Shown piece by piece: positions 7,544 to 22,437 of a stretch of 64,000 nucleotides of DNA. The stretch is from Gillisia sp. UBA3175 (GTDB lineage: Bacteria; Bacteroidota; Bacteroidia; Flavobacteriales; Flavobacteriaceae). Made by a program: the position numbers and the translations under genes. How positions within the stretch are numbered: the stretch's first letter is position 1; every line of letters starts with the position of its first letter. The DNA lies in assembly GCA_002364325.1 (NCBI GenBank), contig DEXV01000003.1, positions 783,229 to 847,228 of the forward strand, in the 5' to 3' direction. The notes below the pieces were generated by a model. It was not told where the DNA came from, ran no database searches, and saw nothing but the letters and a program-made list of their open reading frames with translations.

Positions 7544-7858
7544 TTAAGCGACTGGAGGACCTCTTAGCTGAAATGATAATTTTTGATAATCACTTAAAAA
7601 AAGATAAAAAGCAGGAATTCCTGCTTGGATATATTGGTTTTGAATTAATTCAAAATTCGTAAAATCTAAACTAACAATAGGTGCAGGGTGAAATTTACAG
7701 ATTTTGCAATCTAGTACAGATTGGTGTATATGAGTAGTGCTATGATCATTACATCCAAATTTAAATTCATGAGCAAAAACATGGCTATTAACATATAAAG
7801 CAGGGAATAACAGGGCGATTGTTAAACCAATGAGACCATATTTTTGAAAGGATTTCAA
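7544..7858 (-). CDS. small His/Cys-rich exported protein, probable metal-uptake accessory
   Basis: A 104-residue protein with one N-terminal hydrophobic segment (about residues 10-28), either a signal peptide or an anchor. The following part carries possible metal ligands: HVFAHEF, CNDHSTTHIHQ and CKICKFHP. I recall small proteins with a His-rich stretch and a CxxC motif next to TonB receptors in Flavobacteriia, but I cannot name the family. The gene lies one base after the DUF6787 gene and 67 bases before the TonB receptor, so all three are probably cotranscribed. A periplasmic metal-binding or metal-delivery role is inferred from ligands and context. Confidence 0.7.
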   Translation of the reverse strand: MKSFQKYGLIGLTIALLFPALYVNSHVFAHEFKFGCNDHSTTHIHQSVLDCKICKFHPAPIVSLDFTNFELIQNQYIQAGIPAFYLFLSDYQKLSFQLRGPPVA

Positions 7859-14188: not shown

Positions 14189-14770
14189 ATGGAAAAAACC
14201 TCTCAAATTATATATAAGAGCTGCATTTCTAAAAAAGAATTGATAGGAATATTAAACCTGCAAAAAAACAATCATTTTAGCGCAATTACTCGAGAACAAT
14301 CTGAGACCGAGGGTTTCTTAACATGTATTCATAATGTGGATCTCTTAGAAAAATGGAATGAGAGTACGCCTCACATAATTGCGATCAAAGATGATACAAT
14401 CTTAGGATATTTACTAGCAATGACTTCCGAAGCTTCAGAAGATATGCCCATTTTAAGATCTATGTTTCAAATGTTTCATGAAGTAGAGTATCAAGGGAAA
14501 TCTATTTCATCATATAATTATGTAGTAGTTGGACAGGTGTGTATTGCAAAAGAATATAGAGGGCAAGGTTTGTTGTATAAATTATATCAGCTTTATTTAG
14601 AATGTTATAAAAACAAGTTCGATTTTGCTATTACCGAAATTGCAGTAAGAAATAAACGATCACTAGAAGCGCATCTAAATAATGGTTTTCAGGAAATATT
14701 CCAATATAGAGACTCAGATGGTGAGGAGTGGCGTATAGTTATTTGGGATTGGAACAAAAAAATAGGATAG
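14189..14770 (+). CDS. GNAT family N-acetyltransferase
   Basis: A 193-residue protein with the GNAT core: beta-strand TILGYLLAMT, then VVGQVCIAKEYRGQGLLYKLYQLY, where YRGQGLL is the acetyl-CoA pyrophosphate-binding motif A (Q/RxxGxG/A), and the later AVRNKRSLEAHLNNGFQEI typical of motif B. The acceptor cannot be told from sequence. The gene is isolated between two minus-strand genes. I see no terminator stem directly after it. Confidence 0.85.
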   Translation: MEKTSQIIYKSCISKKELIGILNLQKNNHFSAITREQSETEGFLTCIHNVDLLEKWNESTPHIIAIKDDTILGYLLAMTSEASEDMPILRSMFQMFHEVEYQGKSISSYNYVVVGQVCIAKEYRGQGLLYKLYQLYLECYKNKFDFAITEIAVRNKRSLEAHLNNGFQEIFQYRDSDGEEWRIVIWDWNKKIG

Positions 14771-14811: not shown

Positions 14812-15294
14812 TTATTTCTTCACGAATCTTTTAATAGCAACTTGTCTCTGGTTGGCTTCAACCACTAAAATATAAGTTCCTTTATCCAATGCAGTTACAT
14901 CTATTTGTGCAGAATGATTTGGAACTTCAAAATGACCAGTTATCAAAATCTCTCCGGTACTTGTGTAAATTGAATATGCTCTCAATACATAATGTTCACT
15001 AGAAATATTTACGAAGTCTGTAGTTGGATTAGGATATAACTGCAAGCGAATTTTATCTGCACTATTATGTCCAGGTCCTTGGTTTTGAAATCCCGGTTCA
15101 TGTATTGAAAATCCTGGTTCGTGTATAAGAAATTCTGGTTCATGGCCCTCGATTCCAGGTTCATGGATCTGAATTCCAGGTTCATGGATTTGTACTGTTA
15201 CATCCGTCTTAACTGTTTGGGCGCTTAGAGAGAAAATCCCTAATAAACAAAATGCAACTGTAAGTAGCATTTCGTGGTGTAATTTTTTCATCAT
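14812..15294 (-). CDS. T9SS-exported HEPG heptad-repeat protein
   Basis: A 160-residue protein with three parts. Residues 1-26 are a signal peptide ending LSAQ. Residues 34-75 are six consecutive heptads: VQIHEPG, IQIHEPG, IEGHEPE, FLIHEPG, FSIHEPG, FQNQGPG. Residues about 85-160 are a T9SS type A sorting domain (YPNPTTDFVNIS to KRFVKK). Almost nothing lies between signal peptide and sorting domain except the repeats, so after export the cargo would be a peptide of roughly 55 residues. No family is recognised. The upstream gene on the same strand encodes an M4 peptidase carrying one HEPG just before its own sorting domain. Start could be either of two adjacent ATG codons. Confidence 0.85.
   Translation of the reverse strand: MMKKLHHEMLLTVAFCLLGIFSLSAQTVKTDVTVQIHEPGIQIHEPGIEGHEPEFLIHEPGFSIHEPGFQNQGPGHNSADKIRLQLYPNPTTDFVNISSEHYVLRAYSIYTSTGEILITGHFEVPNHSAQIDVTALDKGTYILVVEANQRQVAIKRFVKK
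15070..15195 (-). repeat. six tandem 21-base units encoding HEPG heptads
   Basis: Six in-frame 21-base units (126 bases) encode the heptads of the small T9SS protein. The two N-terminal units are nearly identical in DNA (CCAGGTTCATGGAT shared on the plus strand) while the others differ at several codons. The fourth-position G is replaced by E in unit 3, and unit 6 reads NQGPG instead of HEPG. The mixture of near-identical and diverged units suggests growth by tandem duplication. Confidence 0.85.
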
Positions 15295-15356: not shown

Positions 15357-15364
15357 CAAATATA
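15357..15364 (-). promoter_or_regulatory. -7 box TATATTTG of the HEPG-repeat gene
   Basis: The minus strand reads TATATTTG, an exact -7 match, 62 bases before the start codon. No -33 TTG is seen at the usual distance. The 14-base element shared with the M4 gene lies 38 bases further upstream, where an activator could bind. Confidence 0.6.
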
Positions 15365-15402
15365 AAATAAAAACTTATTAATCAGTTATAAGGTATCATA
15401 TT

Positions 15403-15416
15403 ATCGATGAAATACA
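15403..15416 (-). promoter_or_regulatory. shared upstream element, copy 1
   Basis: ATCGATGAAATACA (plus strand) is repeated exactly at 19971-19984 before the M4 peptidase gene. Each copy is upstream of a T9SS-exported protein gene on the minus strand and 36-38 bases before a -7-like box. The palindromic ATCGAT core suits a regulator site. Confidence 0.5.
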
Positions 15417-15485
15417 TAAAAATTTTGAATTATCATAATAATTACTTTAAGTTTAACATTAAAAATTAAAGTTTTAGGCTAAAAA

Positions 15486-15513
15486 AAAAGGGTGGAAATA
15501 TTTCCACCCTTTT
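15486..15513 (-). terminator. intrinsic terminator of the M4 peptidase gene
   Basis: A perfect 20-base palindrome GGGTGGAAATATTTCCACCC at 15490-15509 is flanked by nine A on the left and TTTT on the right. It lies 23 bases beyond the M4 stop on the minus strand, where the A run becomes a U tract. Confidence 0.9.
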
Positions 15514-15535
15514 CTAATCTAACTATGCTTGATAA

Positions 15536-18500
15536 TTATTTTTTGAAAAATCTTTTGTTAAGGATGTGCCCATCTGCTGTATGCAACTTTAAGATAAACA
15601 ATCCCTTTGTTAATTCTGAAACATCTATGATCGCCCTACTGGAAGGAGATTTAAAGTTATATACCCTCATTACTTTTCCAAGTAGATTATATATAGCTAC
15701 AGATTTGATCTCAGATTCATAAATCTCCATATTCAAGTTGCTTATCGTAGGGTTAGGGAATACAGTGAATTGTTTGATCTCTGGATTCTCTGAAGCACCT
15801 GGCTCATGTCCGGCATAAGTAGTTTTAGAAGCTGTTAGGGATTCTTTAACTCCTTCTAAAACAGTAACATCACTAAAATCTGCTAGTGAAGAAGTTCCGT
15901 TTAAATTGGAAGTAGCAGCCAATCCAACATACACGGTAGCACCAAAGTTAACATTGCTAGTTCCAATTAATTGCCAGTTTCCATTTGTTGCAGAAATAAA
16001 AGAAGTAATTGTGTTTCCTTCTTTAACTAATCTAACAAACTTTGGAGCTGTAGCGGCAATATATTTTGAGCTACTAGTACTACCTGTGTTAGATTTTCTA
16101 TACTCAAAATGAGCTGCAGAGCCGGTAAAGTTTGGGTTAGAAACTAGTGCAGTCATCGCGAAAGCAGAGGATGCATCTAAACTTTCTCTAATCATAACAC
16201 CAGCTTTTGCATTTAGATTGGTATTCTCTAAAGAATTTAGTCTAGCAACAATTTCTCCATCACCAGTCATTTGCTGGTACGTAAAGTAAAAAGAATCACT
16301 TTTACTACCTATACCAGTTCCTGAAGCTCCCATTTCAAAATGACCATCTTTATAACAAATAGTACCTGCTTTACTTACGCTTCCAATATCACTAGAAGTC
16401 CATGGTGCAGGAGCACTTGTGCAATAAACGAAATCCTGAACAATACTTACAGATCCAGAACCTGTGAAAGTTCCAGTGTAGGCCTTGAATTTATCTGCTG
16501 CATTTACATCTGTAAGCACCCCGTTCAACTGGAAGTTCCCTAATCTGTCATCGGCATCATCAATGTTAGAAGAATTTACTTTAATTGGTATTAATTGTAC
16601 AGTAGAATCATATGCATTTAATTCTTCATCTGTAAAATAGATGGTGAGATCGTAAGTTGCATCTTGATTAGCTACATCTATACTGAAAGCTTTAGATGGT
16701 CTTGCGGTAGCGATATTGGAGAATACACTAAAGCTTGTTCCTTCATCTATAATAGACATAGTAACACACCCAAGATCTGCAGATGCATTTTCGATCTTAG
16801 CGATCAAAGCTTTATCTGTATCACTTAAAAAGAAAATAGTGTTTCCAACTCTAACAGTTGTAGTAGCAGTTTCCCCTTTTTGAGTTTCGATCCCTGCAGG
16901 AGTTGCAGAAACTTTTACATTATCTATAGCAAAACTAAATGGTTGCCCGGCATTGGTATCATTAAACCATTTCCAACCTAGAAAGAAAGCTTTTCCATCT
17001 AGTTCGTTGATAACAGCAGAATAAGTACCACTTTCTGTAATTGCTCCTAATGGACCAGATCCTGTGAATTTTTTCATAGAAATATAATCTGAACCATTTA
17101 AAGAATACACAAATTCTCCATAATCAAAGATTACACTAGAATCTGCAGCATCAAGTTCTCCACCAGCTTCCCAGTCAAAACCTACTGTTACATCGCTAGT
17201 CGCAGCGGCGTTGATAAGTCCAGATCTTAAAACAGTAATAGTTGCAGAATTTGAATCGTAAGAAGCAATATCTACAAGTCCGTTACTAATATATGCTCTT
17301 CCGGCAGCATCTAAGTCACCATCAGCTTTCCAAACATTATTTCCATCAGAAATTCTTACTTCAGACCAACCAGTTGGTAAACCAGGATTAGAAAAAGTTT
17401 CAGTCGCTATAAGATCCATTGGTTCACTTCCTGTACGAGGAGCAAAATCATTATCTGAAATTGCAAATTCTTGTTTTATAAATTTACCATTAAACACAAA
17501 AGATAAAACGATAGTTTCATTGTTCTCTATAACAGCATCATCATAAACAGTTATGTTTAATGACTTAGATTCAGATCCATTGAAAGTTAAAGATTGAGTA
17601 GATAGATCAAAATCTTGTCCTTTTGTGGCAGTGCTTCCAGAAGTACTTAAACTAATAGTAGCAGATGTTGTAATGTCTACACCTCTAAGAACTACATTAT
17701 ATGTATTAAAATCGTCACAACCGCTTATTGGGTTATCTTCAGATAATATTTGTAGGTTGCTATCACTAAAAGTAATTGTATTAGGTTCTCCTGAATTAAA
17801 TGCAAGACCAACGTTTACAGCATGCCATGCATTGGTAGTTTGTTTTTCTTCATTAGAATCTATCCCATATAAAGTTTGAGCAACTAAAATTGAAGTAGCT
17901 CTCATTTCAGCAAATTTAGCATTAGGAGAAAGCATAGTTTCAGCTAGGTAAGTGATTCTTTCAGCAGTCAAAAATCCTAATCCTTCAACAGAGTACTGGT
18001 TTCCAGCATCATTAACTTGATCATCTGCAGATTGCTTATTAAATCCAGCTGTAAAAGCTTGCCCACTACCTGTAACCATTAAATAATACCATTTATTTAG
18101 AACTCCACTATTATTGTGAACTCCACATTGGTCATTTGCCAAGGTAGGATCGCAATTTTGATCTGTCCAATTAACGCCTCCATAAGAATCTGGATTACCA
18201 GCAGCTTTTGGATCATCCATCCATCTTAAAGCTCGAGATGCTGCTTGACCTGGAGCTAATCCACCATCTCTTTCATCTATCTGCTCTCCAATTCCCCATG
18301 GGTCATATGGCAAAGAGTTATCTATTTGAGTAAGCACATAAGACTCTACAGAAGCAGCCCAAATATCTGAAAAACCTTCGTTCATTGCGCCAGATTCATT
18401 TGCATACACTAAATTTGCAGTAAATTCACAAACTCCATGGCCAATTTCATGAGCACAAACATCCATAGAAGTTAAGGGAGCAAAAGAACCATTAGGATTT

Positions 18501-19843
18501 GTTCCTCCTTGGTAGCTTCCATCCCCATAAGTCATTGAAGTCCCATTCCAAAATGCATTATCATAGGCATCGCCATAATGAACATAATTGAAAACCTTTG
18601 TCCCTTTATCGTCGTAGCTAGTTCTATTGTGAATTATTTTCCAATAATCTAATACAACTTCGGCACCCCAATGAGCATCTAAAGCAATGTCATCATTGTT
18701 TTTCTCATTAGCAATTGGGTAAGGGTTAGTTGTAGAAAAATTATCTTTTCTGTGCTCGGCGCTGGTCCAATCATTATCTCCAGTTTCAGGATTTAAACTT
18801 GTGCCATCTCCATCTATAATTGGTTCAGCAACAATATAAATAGATGGAATACTCAACGGTAATCCGCCAATTCCTTGCATGGAAAAAGTTTCATTCTGGA
18901 TTCCTGATGGAGTAACACCTTTTAATACCCAGTTTCCATTTGTATCTTTGGAAGTATCAAAAGTTCTATTTCCAGCATAACGAGTATCTCCTTTTGCAAC
19001 AGTGTAAGGAAGAGGTCCAACGAATGCTTTAGTAGATGTTTGATTTAACGGACCAATAAAAGCTTTTGGAGCAAATTTGATCTCTTTTTTTATATCTTCC
19101 TTAGAATGATTTGCATCAACATGCTTTATTATTGCATCTAATAAAAGAATTTTACCTGTTGCAGCATCCACATAAATATCTGCACGAGACAATGGCTCTG
19201 CAGCATAAACATTAAATCTATAGGCCAAAGTTAGATCGATAACATCAGTTAAATAATCGTCTACAAAAACCAATTCTCCTTTTGGATACACTTCATTATA
19301 TGCCGCAACATACTCTGGAGACGTTCCAAGGCTCTGGATGTAATCCCAAGCATAAGTTGTTGCTCCTACATGATCTAATGCTTTTTGAAGAGCAGCAGCC
19401 TCATTTAAACTTGGAGTAGATGTTATGGTAGCAGGTAAATTATAATACTCTGCAGAAAAACCTACAACAATTCCTTTTTTAGAGATCGCTTTGAAAACAC
19501 CATGCTCCACTTTAACACCATTGGTGTATTGTTGAAATTTATCTACTTGTACACCATTGGATGTGGTAGTAGCCTCTATAACAAAGGTTGTTTCCTGTCC
19601 AAGACCTAAAGCAGATTGTAAAAAAGTTGGAGTTTCACTTAGGGAAAGTGTTTCGCCCGAAGTTTTTAATGTAATTAGAGAGGGCGTTCCTCTGTTAGGT
19701 TCCATTGTGAAGCTGGAAACCCTTTGGTCGCTTGTCAAATTATCCGAAATATCCTGACTCGATGTTTGGGCATTTAACACAAGTAATCCTTGAAAGCATA
19801 AAAAACTTGCAAGAATTATCTTTCTTGGTAATAGTTTAAACAT
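15536..19843 (-). CDS. secreted M4 family metallopeptidase with T9SS sorting domain
   Basis: A 1435-residue extracellular zinc protease (thermolysin family). In order: signal peptide (1-26), FTP and PepSY propeptide domains (about 60-240), M4 catalytic domain (about 280-685) with zinc motif HEIGH at 465-469, third ligand Glu489 (GAMNEGFSD) and active-site His576 (GVHNNSGV), a Calx-beta-like domain (about 705-805), a jelly-roll-like adhesive region (about 815-985), two beta regions, a DUF1349/concanavalin-like module (about 1165-1335, GVMIRESLD), a linker containing HEPG (1346-1349) and a T9SS type A domain (about 1360-1435, FPNPTISN to RFFKK). All catalytic residues are present. KAFIGPL/KAFVGPL is duplicated at the propeptide-catalytic junction. 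Likely degrades exogenous protein at the cell surface. Confidence 0.95.
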   Translation of the reverse strand: MFKLLPRKIILASFLCFQGLLVLNAQTSSQDISDNLTSDQRVSSFTMEPNRGTPSLITLKTSGETLSLSETPTFLQSALGLGQETTFVIEATTTSNGVQVDKFQQYTNGVKVEHGVFKAISKKGIVVGFSAEYYNLPATITSTPSLNEAAALQKALDHVGATTYAWDYIQSLGTSPEYVAAYNEVYPKGELVFVDDYLTDVIDLTLAYRFNVYAAEPLSRADIYVDAATGKILLLDAIIKHVDANHSKEDIKKEIKFAPKAFIGPLNQTSTKAFVGPLPYTVAKGDTRYAGNRTFDTSKDTNGNWVLKGVTPSGIQNETFSMQGIGGLPLSIPSIYIVAEPIIDGDGTSLNPETGDNDWTSAEHRKDNFSTTNPYPIANEKNNDDIALDAHWGAEVVLDYWKIIHNRTSYDDKGTKVFNYVHYGDAYDNAFWNGTSMTYGDGSYQGGTNPNGSFAPLTSMDVCAHEIGHGVCEFTANLVYANESGAMNEGFSDIWAASVESYVLTQIDNSLPYDPWGIGEQIDERDGGLAPGQAASRALRWMDDPKAAGNPDSYGGVNWTDQNCDPTLANDQCGVHNNSGVLNKWYYLMVTGSGQAFTAGFNKQSADDQVNDAGNQYSVEGLGFLTAERITYLAETMLSPNAKFAEMRATSILVAQTLYGIDSNEEKQTTNAWHAVNVGLAFNSGEPNTITFSDSNLQILSEDNPISGCDDFNTYNVVLRGVDITTSATISLSTSGSTATKGQDFDLSTQSLTFNGSESKSLNITVYDDAVIENNETIVLSFVFNGKFIKQEFAISDNDFAPRTGSEPMDLIATETFSNPGLPTGWSEVRISDGNNVWKADGDLDAAGRAYISNGLVDIASYDSNSATITVLRSGLINAAATSDVTVGFDWEAGGELDAADSSVIFDYGEFVYSLNGSDYISMKKFTGSGPLGAITESGTYSAVINELDGKAFFLGWKWFNDTNAGQPFSFAIDNVKVSATPAGIETQKGETATTTVRVGNTIFFLSDTDKALIAKIENASADLGCVTMSIIDEGTSFSVFSNIATARPSKAFSIDVANQDATYDLTIYFTDEELNAYDSTVQLIPIKVNSSNIDDADDRLGNFQLNGVLTDVNAADKFKAYTGTFTGSGSVSIVQDFVYCTSAPAPWTSSDIGSVSKAGTICYKDGHFEMGASGTGIGSKSDSFYFTYQQMTGDGEIVARLNSLENTNLNAKAGVMIRESLDASSAFAMTALVSNPNFTGSAAHFEYRKSNTGSTSSSKYIAATAPKFVRLVKEGNTITSFISATNGNWQLIGTSNVNFGATVYVGLAATSNLNGTSSLADFSDVTVLEGVKESLTASKTTYAGHEPGASENPEIKQFTVFPNPTISNLNMEIYESEIKSVAIYNLLGKVMRVYNFKSPSSRAIIDVSELTKGLFILKLHTADGHILNKRFFKK

Positions 19844-19934: not shown

Positions 19935-19970
19935 GGTTTTAATCATAAAATCGACATAATACTTAATTTA

Positions 19971-19984
19971 ATCGATGAAATACA
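19971..19984 (-). promoter_or_regulatory. shared upstream element, copy 2
   Basis: ATCGATGAAATACA on the plus strand, identical to 15403-15416. It lies 127 bases before the M4 start codon. Confidence 0.5.
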
Positions 19985-20279: not shown

Positions 20280-21473
20280 ATGAGAGATATTTTTAATAAA
20301 TTATTCTTTGCTTTTATACTTATTCCAGCAATAAGCTTCAGCCAATCTTCCAACGACAATAAATCAGTTACAGATCTTGTGCTCTATCAACTTAATAAGG
20401 AAAGGTCTTTACTTAAGGAAAATGTGGATAACAGAATCAAGCTAATGGATGCTAAAATCACAAATCTGGATGAAAGTATTCGGAATACAAGTTCATCTTC
20501 AGAAAAAATTGATAAGTTGGTAGAACGCGTTCAAATTCTGGAAGAGAAACAACAAGAACTAGATAAAAATGTAATTAGTGTTTATAAATACAATTATAGC
20601 TCTGCCGTTTTAAATCTTGCTTCCATGGAGCGGGAGATCAAGCCGCTCAATTTATTTAATAGTTCCAGAGATTTTTACACCACTTTGGATAAAGTTAGCA
20701 ATCCTATGAATTATGCGGGTTATGCTGCCTGGTTTAAAGAATTCGAAAAATATATTGAAGAAAATAAAAAGGACGAAGCCAGACTTGATGCCTTGAGTCA
20801 TATTATAAAAGTTACTGGGAACTTGGCAGAAGGAACGCCGTTTACCGGAATGTTTGCGGGGAGTTTGTTTGAAGGAATAGGCACATTTATTAATAGTTTA
20901 GGTAAAAAGGATAAGGATCTTAGGGAAAAGAGCATGAAAATGTTCAAACTAACTACTTCAGTTTCGCAATTCACTCATGATAAAGATCTAATTGAAACTG
21001 AATGGAATGCTATTGCGAAGAGCTTGGACGAATTAAAGGAACTTCAGCAAAATGCTATGGAAGAAAATATAGTTACAATCTTAGGGATTAATAAGGCTGA
21101 GTTTAAAAAGCGCTTTACAGATGAGACCGATGCCAAGAAAAGAACCCAATATGTGCTGGATATTTCTAAAGTTGCTGAAGAAAATATTGTAGAAGCTAAA
21201 AATAAGAATGGGGAGAACTGGAAACAATCCTATTATAATCAGATGGTAAGTGTGCAAAATTTAAAGATTAGGTTTGGAACGATCACCTTTAGAATACTGG
21301 AAAATCTAGATAAATATAAAACGCTTATCAATAAATATAAGCATGACGAATTTTTGAAAGATGAAGTTTCACAGCTGGAATTAAAATTAAATTTAGTTAG
21401 AAACAGTTTTGAATCTACTTTTAATCCGCAAGATTATATTAGAGCTTCCAATGAAATGTATATAGTAGAGTAG
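20280..21473 (+). CDS. secreted alpha-helical protein of unknown function
   Basis: A 397-residue protein with a signal peptide (1-21, ending SFSQ) and then almost entirely predicted helix. Coiled-coil heptads are clear at about 40-100 (KERSLLKENVDNRIKLMDAK onward) and again at 235-265 and 340-385. Between them, residues about 179-207 form a Gly/Ala/Phe-rich hydrophobic stretch (TPFTGMFAGSLFEGIGTF) flanked by lysines. Long helices with a single central hydrophobic segment recall helical pore-forming proteins of the ClyA/HBL kind, but I see no sequence motif proving it, and it could equally be a periplasmic structural protein. No lipobox and no T9SS tail. Divergent from the M4 peptidase. Clearly coding; function unknown. 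Confidence 0.7.
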   Translation: MRDIFNKLFFAFILIPAISFSQSSNDNKSVTDLVLYQLNKERSLLKENVDNRIKLMDAKITNLDESIRNTSSSSEKIDKLVERVQILEEKQQELDKNVISVYKYNYSSAVLNLASMEREIKPLNLFNSSRDFYTTLDKVSNPMNYAGYAAWFKEFEKYIEENKKDEARLDALSHIIKVTGNLAEGTPFTGMFAGSLFEGIGTFINSLGKKDKDLREKSMKMFKLTTSVSQFTHDKDLIETEWNAIAKSLDELKELQQNAMEENIVTILGINKAEFKKRFTDETDAKKRTQYVLDISKVAEENIVEAKNKNGENWKQSYYNQMVSVQNLKIRFGTITFRILENLDKYKTLINKYKHDEFLKDEVSQLELKLNLVRNSFESTFNPQDYIRASNEMYIVE

Positions 21474-21480
21474 GGCGTTT

Positions 21481-22437
21481 TTACCCTATGTTCTTAGGTA
21501 AATTATGAACCGGCATAAAAGTAATATCATTAATCTTCCAGTGAAGTTCTTTAATTTCCTTTATACCTTTTTCAATATGTTGCGAAGGATCAACGTCTGG
21601 AGCAAGAACAATATATACTTCTCCAAAATACACCTGCCCGTGTTCTCTAAATCTAACTTTGGCTTTCACTACCCAATCCCAAGAATTTATAAGTTCTTCT
21701 ATAATCTCAACTAATTCATCTGGCTTAGAGTTATCTACATGAACCGGCCTGCGGTCCATTAGATCCTGAATAGCATCTTTAAGATTAATATATCCATCCT
21801 TAATTACAGATAATGATATAAACAATGCCGCCGCCGCATCCATCCACCAATAACCCAAACCAACTCCAAGAATTCCAAGCATAGCTGCAAAAGCTGTCAT
21901 GTAATCGGCTTTTTGAGTTTCAGCATCGGTATATAAGATCTTGTTGTGTAATTTTTTTGCGATCGGTAATTTTTTATAGCCTAAGATCATTGAAGGGATG
22001 GAACTATAAAATAATGCGGCTATCATTAGCCAGCCCATCCAGATTTGTTTCCCCATAAACATCATAGACCCAATAGTTGGATGCTCTTGAGATATCAGCG
22101 ATATTGTAGAGTCTACAGCTAGAAAGCAACCCATTCCAAATAAAGCCACAGCCCCAGTTAAAAAGGCAATGCTAAATACCCTGTGATATCCATATGGAAA
22201 ATTGATGTTGGGTCTTTTGTTATAAATACGGGTCGCAATTAAAAAAGAAATAGCAGGTAAGGTGCTTAATGCATCCTCTAACCACGCTGTTTTCATCGCT
22301 TGAGAAGAGCCCATTAACAAATACATAAGAACAATAGTGGAAAGAAGATAGAGCAGTGTTAGCCATTCTAAGACCTTGGCCTTTTTTAGTAATGGCTTTA
22401 AATAATCTGGCAATTCGAAGGTTTCGGAATGGCTCAT
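21481..22437 (-). CDS. cation diffusion facilitator-like transporter with atypical metal site
   Basis: A 318-residue inner-membrane protein of the CDF superfamily: about six membrane helices (residues 20-210) and a cytoplasmic ferredoxin-like C-terminal domain (about 225-318). Canonical CDF proteins carry HxxxD in helices 2 and 5. Here helix 2 reads LEDALSTLPA (residues 53-62), so the His and second Asp positions are Ser58 and Ala62, and helix 5 reads DAETQKAD (171-178), with Thr174 in place of His and Asp178 kept. I recall a CDF subfamily with this pattern paired with a binding-protein gene in other phyla. The ATG overlaps the stop of that partner (ATGA), implying translational coupling. Substrate unknown. 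Confidence 0.85.
   Translation of the reverse strand: MSHSETFELPDYLKPLLKKAKVLEWLTLLYLLSTIVLMYLLMGSSQAMKTAWLEDALSTLPAISFLIATRIYNKRPNINFPYGYHRVFSIAFLTGAVALFGMGCFLAVDSTISLISQEHPTIGSMMFMGKQIWMGWLMIAALFYSSIPSMILGYKKLPIAKKLHNKILYTDAETQKADYMTAFAAMLGILGVGLGYWWMDAAAALFISLSVIKDGYINLKDAIQDLMDRRPVHVDNSKPDELVEIIEELINSWDWVVKAKVRFREHGQVYFGEVYIVLAPDVDPSQHIEKGIKEIKELHWKINDITFMPVHNLPKNIG

What the first reader, a model, noticed from the sequence alone, without database searches (positions are those of the whole stretch)
14812..15294. Tiny T9SS-exported protein whose only cargo is six HEPG heptads
Seen: signal peptide, six heptads at residues 34-75 (four with exact HEPG at the same phase), then a T9SS type A domain; nothing else. 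Known: T9SS normally carries large enzymes and adhesins, and the sorting domain is removed or used to attach cargo to A-LPS. Inference: the product is a short repeated surface peptide, perhaps metal-binding (one His plus Glu per heptad), a protease substrate or inhibitor, or a multi-copy peptide precursor cut between heptads. I know of no described family like this.
Basis: partly seen in the sequence, partly recalled or inferred. Interest (0 to 1): 0.75.

Follow-up and report, generated by a model that had tools for sequence, protein, structure and literature searches.

The report
Tiny exported histidine-repeat surface peptide
A Gillisia bacterium encodes a very small exported protein whose only payload is a string of His-Glu-Pro-Gly repeats; relatives carry a different histidine-rich payload at the same place, and the gene seems to share a control switch with a neighbouring zinc protease, which points to a metal-handling surface peptide that has yet to be tested.

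Summary
Window 14812-15294, minus strand, encodes 160 residues: a signal peptide, six in-phase heptads (HEPG at 37, 44, 58 and 65, HEPE at 51, then QGPG) and a type A T9SS tail. Eleven database homologues keep the array.

Two things were not in the finding. First, at the same chromosomal slot six other Gillisia-genus genomes carry a tiny T9SS protein with a differently worded but also His-rich payload (HxH motifs). The eight slot payloads have 4-7 His per 60 residues; 79 other T9SS linkers of the genus have 0-3. Second, the gene has an upstream element, TGYATTTCATCGA with a weaker copy 21 bp on, shaped like a LytTR operator. In the held own genome (77% complete) it occurs three times: before this gene, before the neighbouring M4 metalloprotease (whose linker carries HEPG), and before a LytTR response regulator.

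Best reading: a disordered, surface-displayed, metal-binding peptide, probably co-regulated with a zinc protease. Metal binding, export and regulation are inferred, none measured. The tail-domain tree does not confirm that the two payload types are orthologous. New variant of a known kind.

The parts
14812..15294 (-). Gene of the 160-aa heptad protein
   Evidence: 11 full-length homologues
15217..15294 (-). Signal peptide, about residues 1-26
   Evidence: read by eye; no predictor run
15070..15195 (-). Six in-phase heptads (residues 34-75), core IHEPG, predicted disordered
   Evidence: AlphaFold2 pLDDT 34-37 per block of ten
15052..15084 (-). Conserved spacer NQGPGHNSADK (residues 71-81) between repeats and tail
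   Evidence: alignment of 12 proteins
14815..15039 (-). T9SS type A C-terminal sorting domain (residues 86-160)
   Evidence: PF18962 and TIGR04183; beta-sandwich, best Foldseek match the substrate tail domain in 8gl8, E 1.7e-4
15401..15416 (-). Upstream element TGTATTTCATCGATAA, LytTR-operator-like, first half-site
15379..15395 (-). Expected place of the weaker second half-site, 21 bp downstream of the first
   Evidence: position from the averaged peak; weak in this copy
15357..15364 (-). TATATTTG, flavobacterial -7-type box (consensus recalled)
   Evidence: same box at -70 to -73 in four of six His-rich positional homologues
15484..15515 (-). Intrinsic-terminator-like hairpin plus T run after the protease gene, suggesting separate transcripts
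   Evidence: -19.1 kcal/mol, z -4.80; the consensus scan reported no terminator here
15536..19843 (-). M4 (thermolysin-type) metalloprotease with T9SS tail, 1435 aa
15797..15808 (-). HEPG in the protease's linker just before its sorting domain
19969..19984 (-). Same element upstream of the protease gene (TGTATTTCATCGATTA)
20280..21473 (+). 397-aa protein with signal peptide by eye, left flank of the conserved slot
   Evidence: match in 15 of 16 genomes of the genus, some fragmentary; no Pfam or NCBIfam match
14189..14770 (+). GNAT acetyltransferase, right flank of the slot in several genomes
   Evidence: synteny

Best explanation
The gene makes a small type A T9SS substrate. After Sec export and passage through the T9SS the tail is removed, leaving a disordered peptide of roughly 50 residues on the surface or in the medium. 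Its regularly spaced His (with Glu) side chains bind transition-metal ions, most likely zinc or copper, as a surface buffer or scavenger. It is made together with a secreted zinc metalloprotease under a LytTR-type response regulator. SHOWN: the repeats, the tail domain, the specific His enrichment, the shared upstream element. INFERRED: export, cleavage, metal binding, which metal, and the identity of the regulator.
For: His in the 60 residues before the last 75 is 5-7 in the 12 heptad proteins and 4-6 in the 6 His-rich slot proteins, and 0-3 (mean 0.67) in 79 other T9SS proteins of the genus. In the six His-rich proteins four His of the payload are invariant while most other payload residues vary; by eye HxH is kept in all 16 database homologues. 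M4 protease relatives in another genus (G340, G160) carry HDGKHDHKDHKHK in the same linker position. The element TGYATTTCATCGA occurs 3 times in the held own genome, 0 reversed: before the heptad gene, the M4 gene and a LytTR response regulator. Across 16 genomes TGYATTTCRTCGA has 42 sites against 4 reversed, and a second copy peaks at exactly +21 bp (6.71 of 14 matches, against 3.1-5.6 at the other shifts tried), fitting LytTR sites of 9-bp direct repeats spaced 10-13 bp (PMC11347149, passages).
Against: No metal was tested, and HEPG is not a metal site that I know of. No metal-transport gene is fixed beside the slot: the cation-efflux gene at 21481-22437 is not next to the 397-aa gene in G403 and G409. 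The tail-domain tree puts the His-rich tails nearer the M4 tails (94/73) than the heptad tails; AU tests reject none of four groupings (p 0.20-0.28). The element also precedes DUF4402 and zinc-ribbon-like genes with no evident metal role. G111's His-rich gene lacks the element. The extra small T9SS protein of L011/G408 has the element but no His in its linker. The LytTR gene lacks a good forward match in 9 of the 14 other genomes that hold it.
Confidence: 0.45

Rival explanations
1. Partner of the M4 protease: the array is a decoy substrate or slow inhibitor that occupies the active site, or a tag by which protease and peptide sit together on the surface.
For: The protease is adjacent, shares the upstream element, and carries HEPG in its own linker; among the eight slot genomes the heptad form occurs in the two with the protease at the slot (2 of 2) and not in the six without it (0 of 6). 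The residue after HEPx is F, I, V or L in 59 of 61 units, residues that thermolysin-type enzymes favour after the cut (recalled).
Against: Two related genomes are a weak association. G397 has a 63%-identical M4 protease elsewhere in its genome and no heptad protein. HEPG is in only 3 of 10 database protease relatives. The His-rich relatives live without this protease.
Confidence: 0.18
2. Mechanical or adhesive surface hair: a flexible, proline-glycine spaced, elastin-like string with no metal role.
For: Predicted disordered; regular PG turns with flanking aliphatic and aromatic residues.
Against: Does not explain why the alternative payloads at the slot share His but not PG or the heptad period. 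Only about six units.
Confidence: 0.2
3. Payload without own function: a 21-bp minisatellite captured in a linker, with the tail domain doing the work.
For: Similar 21-bp repeats occur in other class members, one of them (L263) reading IQEPGL with stops.
Against: Array present in 12 of 12 proteins down to 55% overall identity. In-phase units keep HEP in 5 of 6 (window) and 6 of 7 (L011) while synonymous sites among these kept units differ at 0.47-0.55 (units were picked by HEP, so the low pN is partly by construction).
Confidence: 0.1
4. Multi-copy peptide precursor cut between heptads.
For: Head-to-tail near-identical units.
Against: By eye no dibasic or other conserved cutting signal; the last unit is degenerate; payload replaced by non-repeat forms at the same slot.
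Confidence: 0.04

Closest known systems
T9SS type A substrates (PF18962/TIGR04183), e.g. the tail domain of RemZ of Flavobacterium johnsoniae in 8gl8
   Same: Tail domain by profile and by fold.
   Different: RemZ is a large RemA-adhesin homologue, ~110 kDa (passages of PMC10994853); here the payload is about 50 disordered residues.
Minimal T9SS protein of the same genome (112 aa, L001)
   Same: Signal plus tail, tiny size.
   Different: Almost no payload, no His array.
His-rich tiny T9SS proteins of Gillisia hiemivivida, G. marina and others (unnamed family)
   Same: Same slot, size, signal-peptide pattern, His richness; upstream element in 5 of 6 by exact pattern.
   Different: HxH-type payload, no heptads; tail tree does not confirm orthology.
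Histidine-rich metal-binding peptides such as mammalian histidine-rich glycoprotein repeats or Helicobacter Hpn (recalled)
   Same: Repeated or clustered His in a disordered segment.
   Different: Other motif, other export route, no metal data here.
LytTR regulator operators (PMC11347149, PMC6193735, passages)
   Same: Direct repeats with a 21-bp period upstream of the promoter.
   Different: Half-site sequence not matched to any published one; binding not shown.

Membership tests
T9SS type A substrate | C-terminal sorting domain over the curated cut-off | tested here: met
   45 bits vs 27; 42.4 vs 23
T9SS type A substrate | Sec signal peptide | tested here: inconclusive
   Clear by eye; no predictor available
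T9SS type A substrate | Export and tail removal | not testable with these tools
   Needs proteomics
T9SS type A substrate | T9SS machinery in the genome | not tested
   sprA/porV were not searched; 11 tail matches were found in the own genome
Histidine-rich metal-binding peptide | His enrichment beyond comparable segments | tested here: met
   5-7 (heptads) and 4-6 (slot relatives) against 0-3 of 60 in 79 others
Histidine-rich metal-binding peptide | Metal coordination | not testable with these tools
   No assay
LytTR regulon member | Tandem direct repeats spaced about two helical turns upstream of the promoter | tested here: met
   Peak at +21 averaged over 34 sites; the second half-site is weak in the window copy itself
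LytTR regulon member | Bound and controlled by the LytTR regulator of L218 | not testable with these tools
   Exact site upstream of the regulator in the own genome; 1-2 mismatches in 5 of 14 other genomes; 3 or more in the remaining 9
Orthologue of the His-rich slot family | Tail domains form one clade | tested here: inconclusive
   Not in the best tree; not rejected, p-AU 0.204

The most novel reading that the evidence does not exclude
A LytTR-controlled surface metal system in which a secreted zinc protease is served by a His-rich metal-binding module that is carried either in trans (a separate T9SS minipeptide, as in Gillisia) or in cis (a His-rich linker of the protease, as in G340 and G160), the module's sequence being freely rewritten while its metal-binding property is kept.
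Probability: 0.18. Interest if true: 0.78.

Novelty: new variant of a known kind. Interest (0 to 1): 0.52.

Why it matters
If true, the T9SS would be shown to deliver metal-handling peptides and not only enzymes and adhesins, and a LytTR circuit would tie surface metal supply to a secreted metalloprotease. The element gives a directly testable regulon in a group where, as far as I recall, few transcription-factor sites are known. Even if metal binding fails, the slot looks like a case of a secreted payload being rewritten under conserved control.

Tried and rejected
Search for the repeats elsewhere: a 50-aa heptad query against 395 genomes of the class gave 20 genomes with matches at E <= 0.01, the own one included. 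Of the other matches I read the 11 that came as loci (L263-L273): none has HEPG; they are other short tandem repeats or chance, several with stops (one search read L270 and L273 at a wrong offset, one search corrects it). Origin by duplication of the protease's 3' end was considered: the tail tree keeps M4 tails as their own clade (99/95), and heptad + M4 as one clade is neither found nor rejected (p 0.211). RNA families: none in the window. Phage and defence libraries: only weak matches judged as chance (E 0.25 and 0.017). The second Foldseek hit, CopC, a copper protein (E 1.4e-3), was not used: it matches the tail, not the payload.

Literature, by search listings only: HEPG drowns in HepG2 (20 of 78,444 listed); T9SS with heptads or small proteins (15 of 2,917 listed) and with His-rich or metal-binding terms (15 of 29 listed, 1 paper) showed nothing on such cargo; LytTR with T9SS or Flavobacterium (15 of 31), the motif strings (10 of 11), LytTR with DUF4402 or direct repeats in Bacteroidetes (12 of 14; no DUF4402 occurrence in those listed) and Gillisia with type IX secretion (6 of 6) showed no description of this family or element. 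Unlisted papers and subscription papers are not excluded.

An earlier count said HEPG is in 4 of 10 protease relatives; the correct count is 3 of 10 (P0014, P0016, P0017; P0014 stands for the window's own cluster).

The first His background (89 linkers from loci at hand) was biased by how loci were fetched, so 80 further regions were taken from the rows that had no locus, leaving out the slot, M4 and own-genome rows; 79 were usable, one (L136) was cut out of frame. A first pass guessed strands and dropped or misread a few; one search is the corrected count.

Full report
OBSERVATION. The minus strand of 14812-15294 encodes a 160-aa protein with in-phase HEPG at 37, 44, 58 and 65, HEPE at 51 and a degenerate last unit; lag-7 identity is 22 of 50 against at most 12 in 20,000 shuffles. 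The tail is a T9SS type A sorting domain. AlphaFold2 on 12 sequences (mean pLDDT 58.5, pTM 0.45) gives a beta-sandwich tail (block means 73-86 from residue 91 on) and a disordered repeat region (34-37); the best Foldseek match, E 1.7e-4, is the substrate tail domain (RemZ) in the T9SS translocon structure 8gl8 (substrate identity from passages of PMC10994853).

FAMILY. A search of 5.8 billion proteins gives 12 proteins at E <= 1, of which 11 are full-length relatives with the array and one shares only the tail; only proteins of about 88-280 aa were candidates. The 12 heptad proteins, the window's included, have 4-6 HEP units each. In-phase units keep HEP in 5 of 6 (window) and 6 of 7 (L011) although synonymous positions among the kept units differ at 0.47-0.55; because units were chosen by HEP, the low non-synonymous value (0-0.04) is partly built in. 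For comparison the tails of the two genes differ at pS 0.78 and pN 0.25.

WHERE IT LIVES. The related contig L011 is titled Gillisia sp.; homologues of the slot family are named Gillisia hiemivivida, G. marina and Gillisia sp. M10.2A, so the window is Gillisia or a close relative. Of 16 same-genus genomes, heptad genes are in 2 (own genome and G408); 6 more (G399, G402, G403, G409, G401, G111) have a short T9SS protein at the same slot beside the 397-aa gene. G111's protein matches P0001 over the tail only (2.0e-6) and is placed by position. Of the other 8, seven gave no match and G397 only the tail of its M4 protease. The own genome is 77% and G408 66% complete, so absences there mean little.

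SAME SLOT, OTHER PAYLOAD. These six proteins lack heptads. Their payloads read, for example, DHSHSGGNNAHTHAVSG...MHFCPC or STPHASGADKHDHGVAKG...WHNGP. Payload His 36, 43, 45 and 61 (numbering of the first row) are invariant in 6 of 6; HxH is kept in 16 of 16 database relatives by eye. Counting His in the 60 residues before the last 75: heptad proteins 5-7 (12 of 12), slot relatives 4-6 (6 of 6), 79 other T9SS proteins of the genus 0-3 (38 with 0, 30 with 1, 10 with 2, 1 with 3). In an earlier set of 89 linkers from loci at hand, 8 reached 0.08 His: two heptad genes, four slot relatives (the other two have 0.067), and two M4 proteases of another genus with HDGKHDHKDHKHK linkers (G340, G160); a third relative, G351, has CRCDKHNKKHKC at 0.05. 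The M4 proteases of this genus themselves have 0 or 1 His in that stretch.

ORTHOLOGY IS NOT PROVEN. For: slot, size, signal-peptide pattern, and an upstream element 108-112 nt before the start in both heptad genes and five of six His-rich genes. Against: the tail tree (81 rows, 83 columns, 18 of 78 inner branches starred) groups His-rich tails with M4 tails (94/73) and heptad tails with the extra small T9SS protein of G408, a long branch; forcing heptad and His-rich tails together is not rejected (p-AU 0.204).

CONTROL ELEMENT. TGYATTTCATCGA occurs 3 times in the held own genome and 0 times reversed: before the heptad gene, before the M4 protease, and 72 nt before the likely GTG start of a LytTR response regulator (PF04397 and PF00072). 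In 16 genomes TGYATTTCRTCGA has 42 sites against 4 reversed. Of 33 sites (of the 42) whose surroundings read: 7 precede slot-type small T9SS genes, 1 the M4 gene, 1 the LytTR gene, 7 DUF4402-type genes (two sites before one gene), 4 small zinc-ribbon-like genes, and 13 other genes or no gene in range; one DUF4402 and one zinc-ribbon-like protein were checked with Pfam, the second being below cut-off, the rest sorted by eye. Averaged over 34 sites (these 33 and the one before G402's slot gene) a second copy stands out at +21 bp (6.71 of 14 matches; other shifts 3.1-5.6). The LytTR literature gives 9-bp direct repeats spaced 10-13 bp (PMC11347149, passages), so the geometry fits. The regulator gene is in 15 of 16 genomes; upstream of it the 13-mer is exact in the own genome and has 1-2 mismatches in 5 others (L248, L250, L251, L252, L253); in the remaining 9 the best forward match has 3 or more mismatches, though by eye several carry the core reversed. 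Which regulator binds is therefore open.

PROTEASE LINK. In both heptad genomes an M4 protease lies between the 397-aa gene and the heptad gene; none of the six His-rich genomes has a full-length relative of it at E <= 1e-30 (G409 has a partial 41% match elsewhere). G397 has a 63% relative at another place, without HEPG and without a heptad protein. Both slot proteases carry HEPG in the linker, as do 3 of the 10 database relatives (these two included); two more have EPG. The upstream element is exact in the window and, over the 13-mer, in G340 and G160 (0 of 500 shuffles as good for each). L011 has TGCATTTCACCGA, one mismatch in 13, at nearly the same distance, but over 17 positions it is no better than chance (5 mismatches; 124 of 500 shuffles as good). 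G397, G351 and four other loci lack it. A hairpin and T run after the protease gene suggests separate transcripts, though the terminator scan did not report it.

CONCLUSION. The least assuming reading that covers the His statistics, the payload rewriting and the shared element is a disordered exported peptide that handles metal, made along with a secreted zinc protease. Each functional step is inferred. Rivals (protease partner, mechanical hair, functionless minisatellite, peptide precursor) stay open with the odds given.

Noticed in passing
16 genomes of the genus; loci L216-L246: The element TGYATTTCRTCGA with a +21 bp partner also precedes DUF4402-type secreted proteins and 80-86 aa zinc-ribbon-like proteins, so it seems to mark a wider regulon.
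   Followed up: partly
L218:1586-2296: LytTR response regulator between ribosomal protein genes and a primosomal-helicase-like gene (neighbours named by eye), with the element 72 nt upstream in the own genome.
   Followed up: partly
L129-L131 (G351, G340, G160): M4 proteases of other genera with His/Asp/Cys-rich linkers before the T9SS tail.
   Followed up: partly
L011:5352-5813: An extra small T9SS protein (153 aa) between protease and heptad gene, with the element but no His in its linker.
   Followed up: no
window 20280-21473: 397-aa protein without any Pfam or NCBIfam match, with matches in 15 of 16 genomes of the genus (some fragmentary) and in 12 of 397 family genomes.
   Followed up: no
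window 7544-7858: 104-aa protein with clustered His and Cys (HSTTHIHQSVLDCKICKFHPAP) before a TonB-receptor-like gene; no Pfam match.
   Followed up: no
L263 (G468) and L270 (G676): Tandem repeats of seven codons in other class members: one reads IQEPGLSIQEPGL with stops, the other HEDGIHF repeatedly in an open frame of about 100 codons; possible kind of source for such arrays.
   Followed up: no
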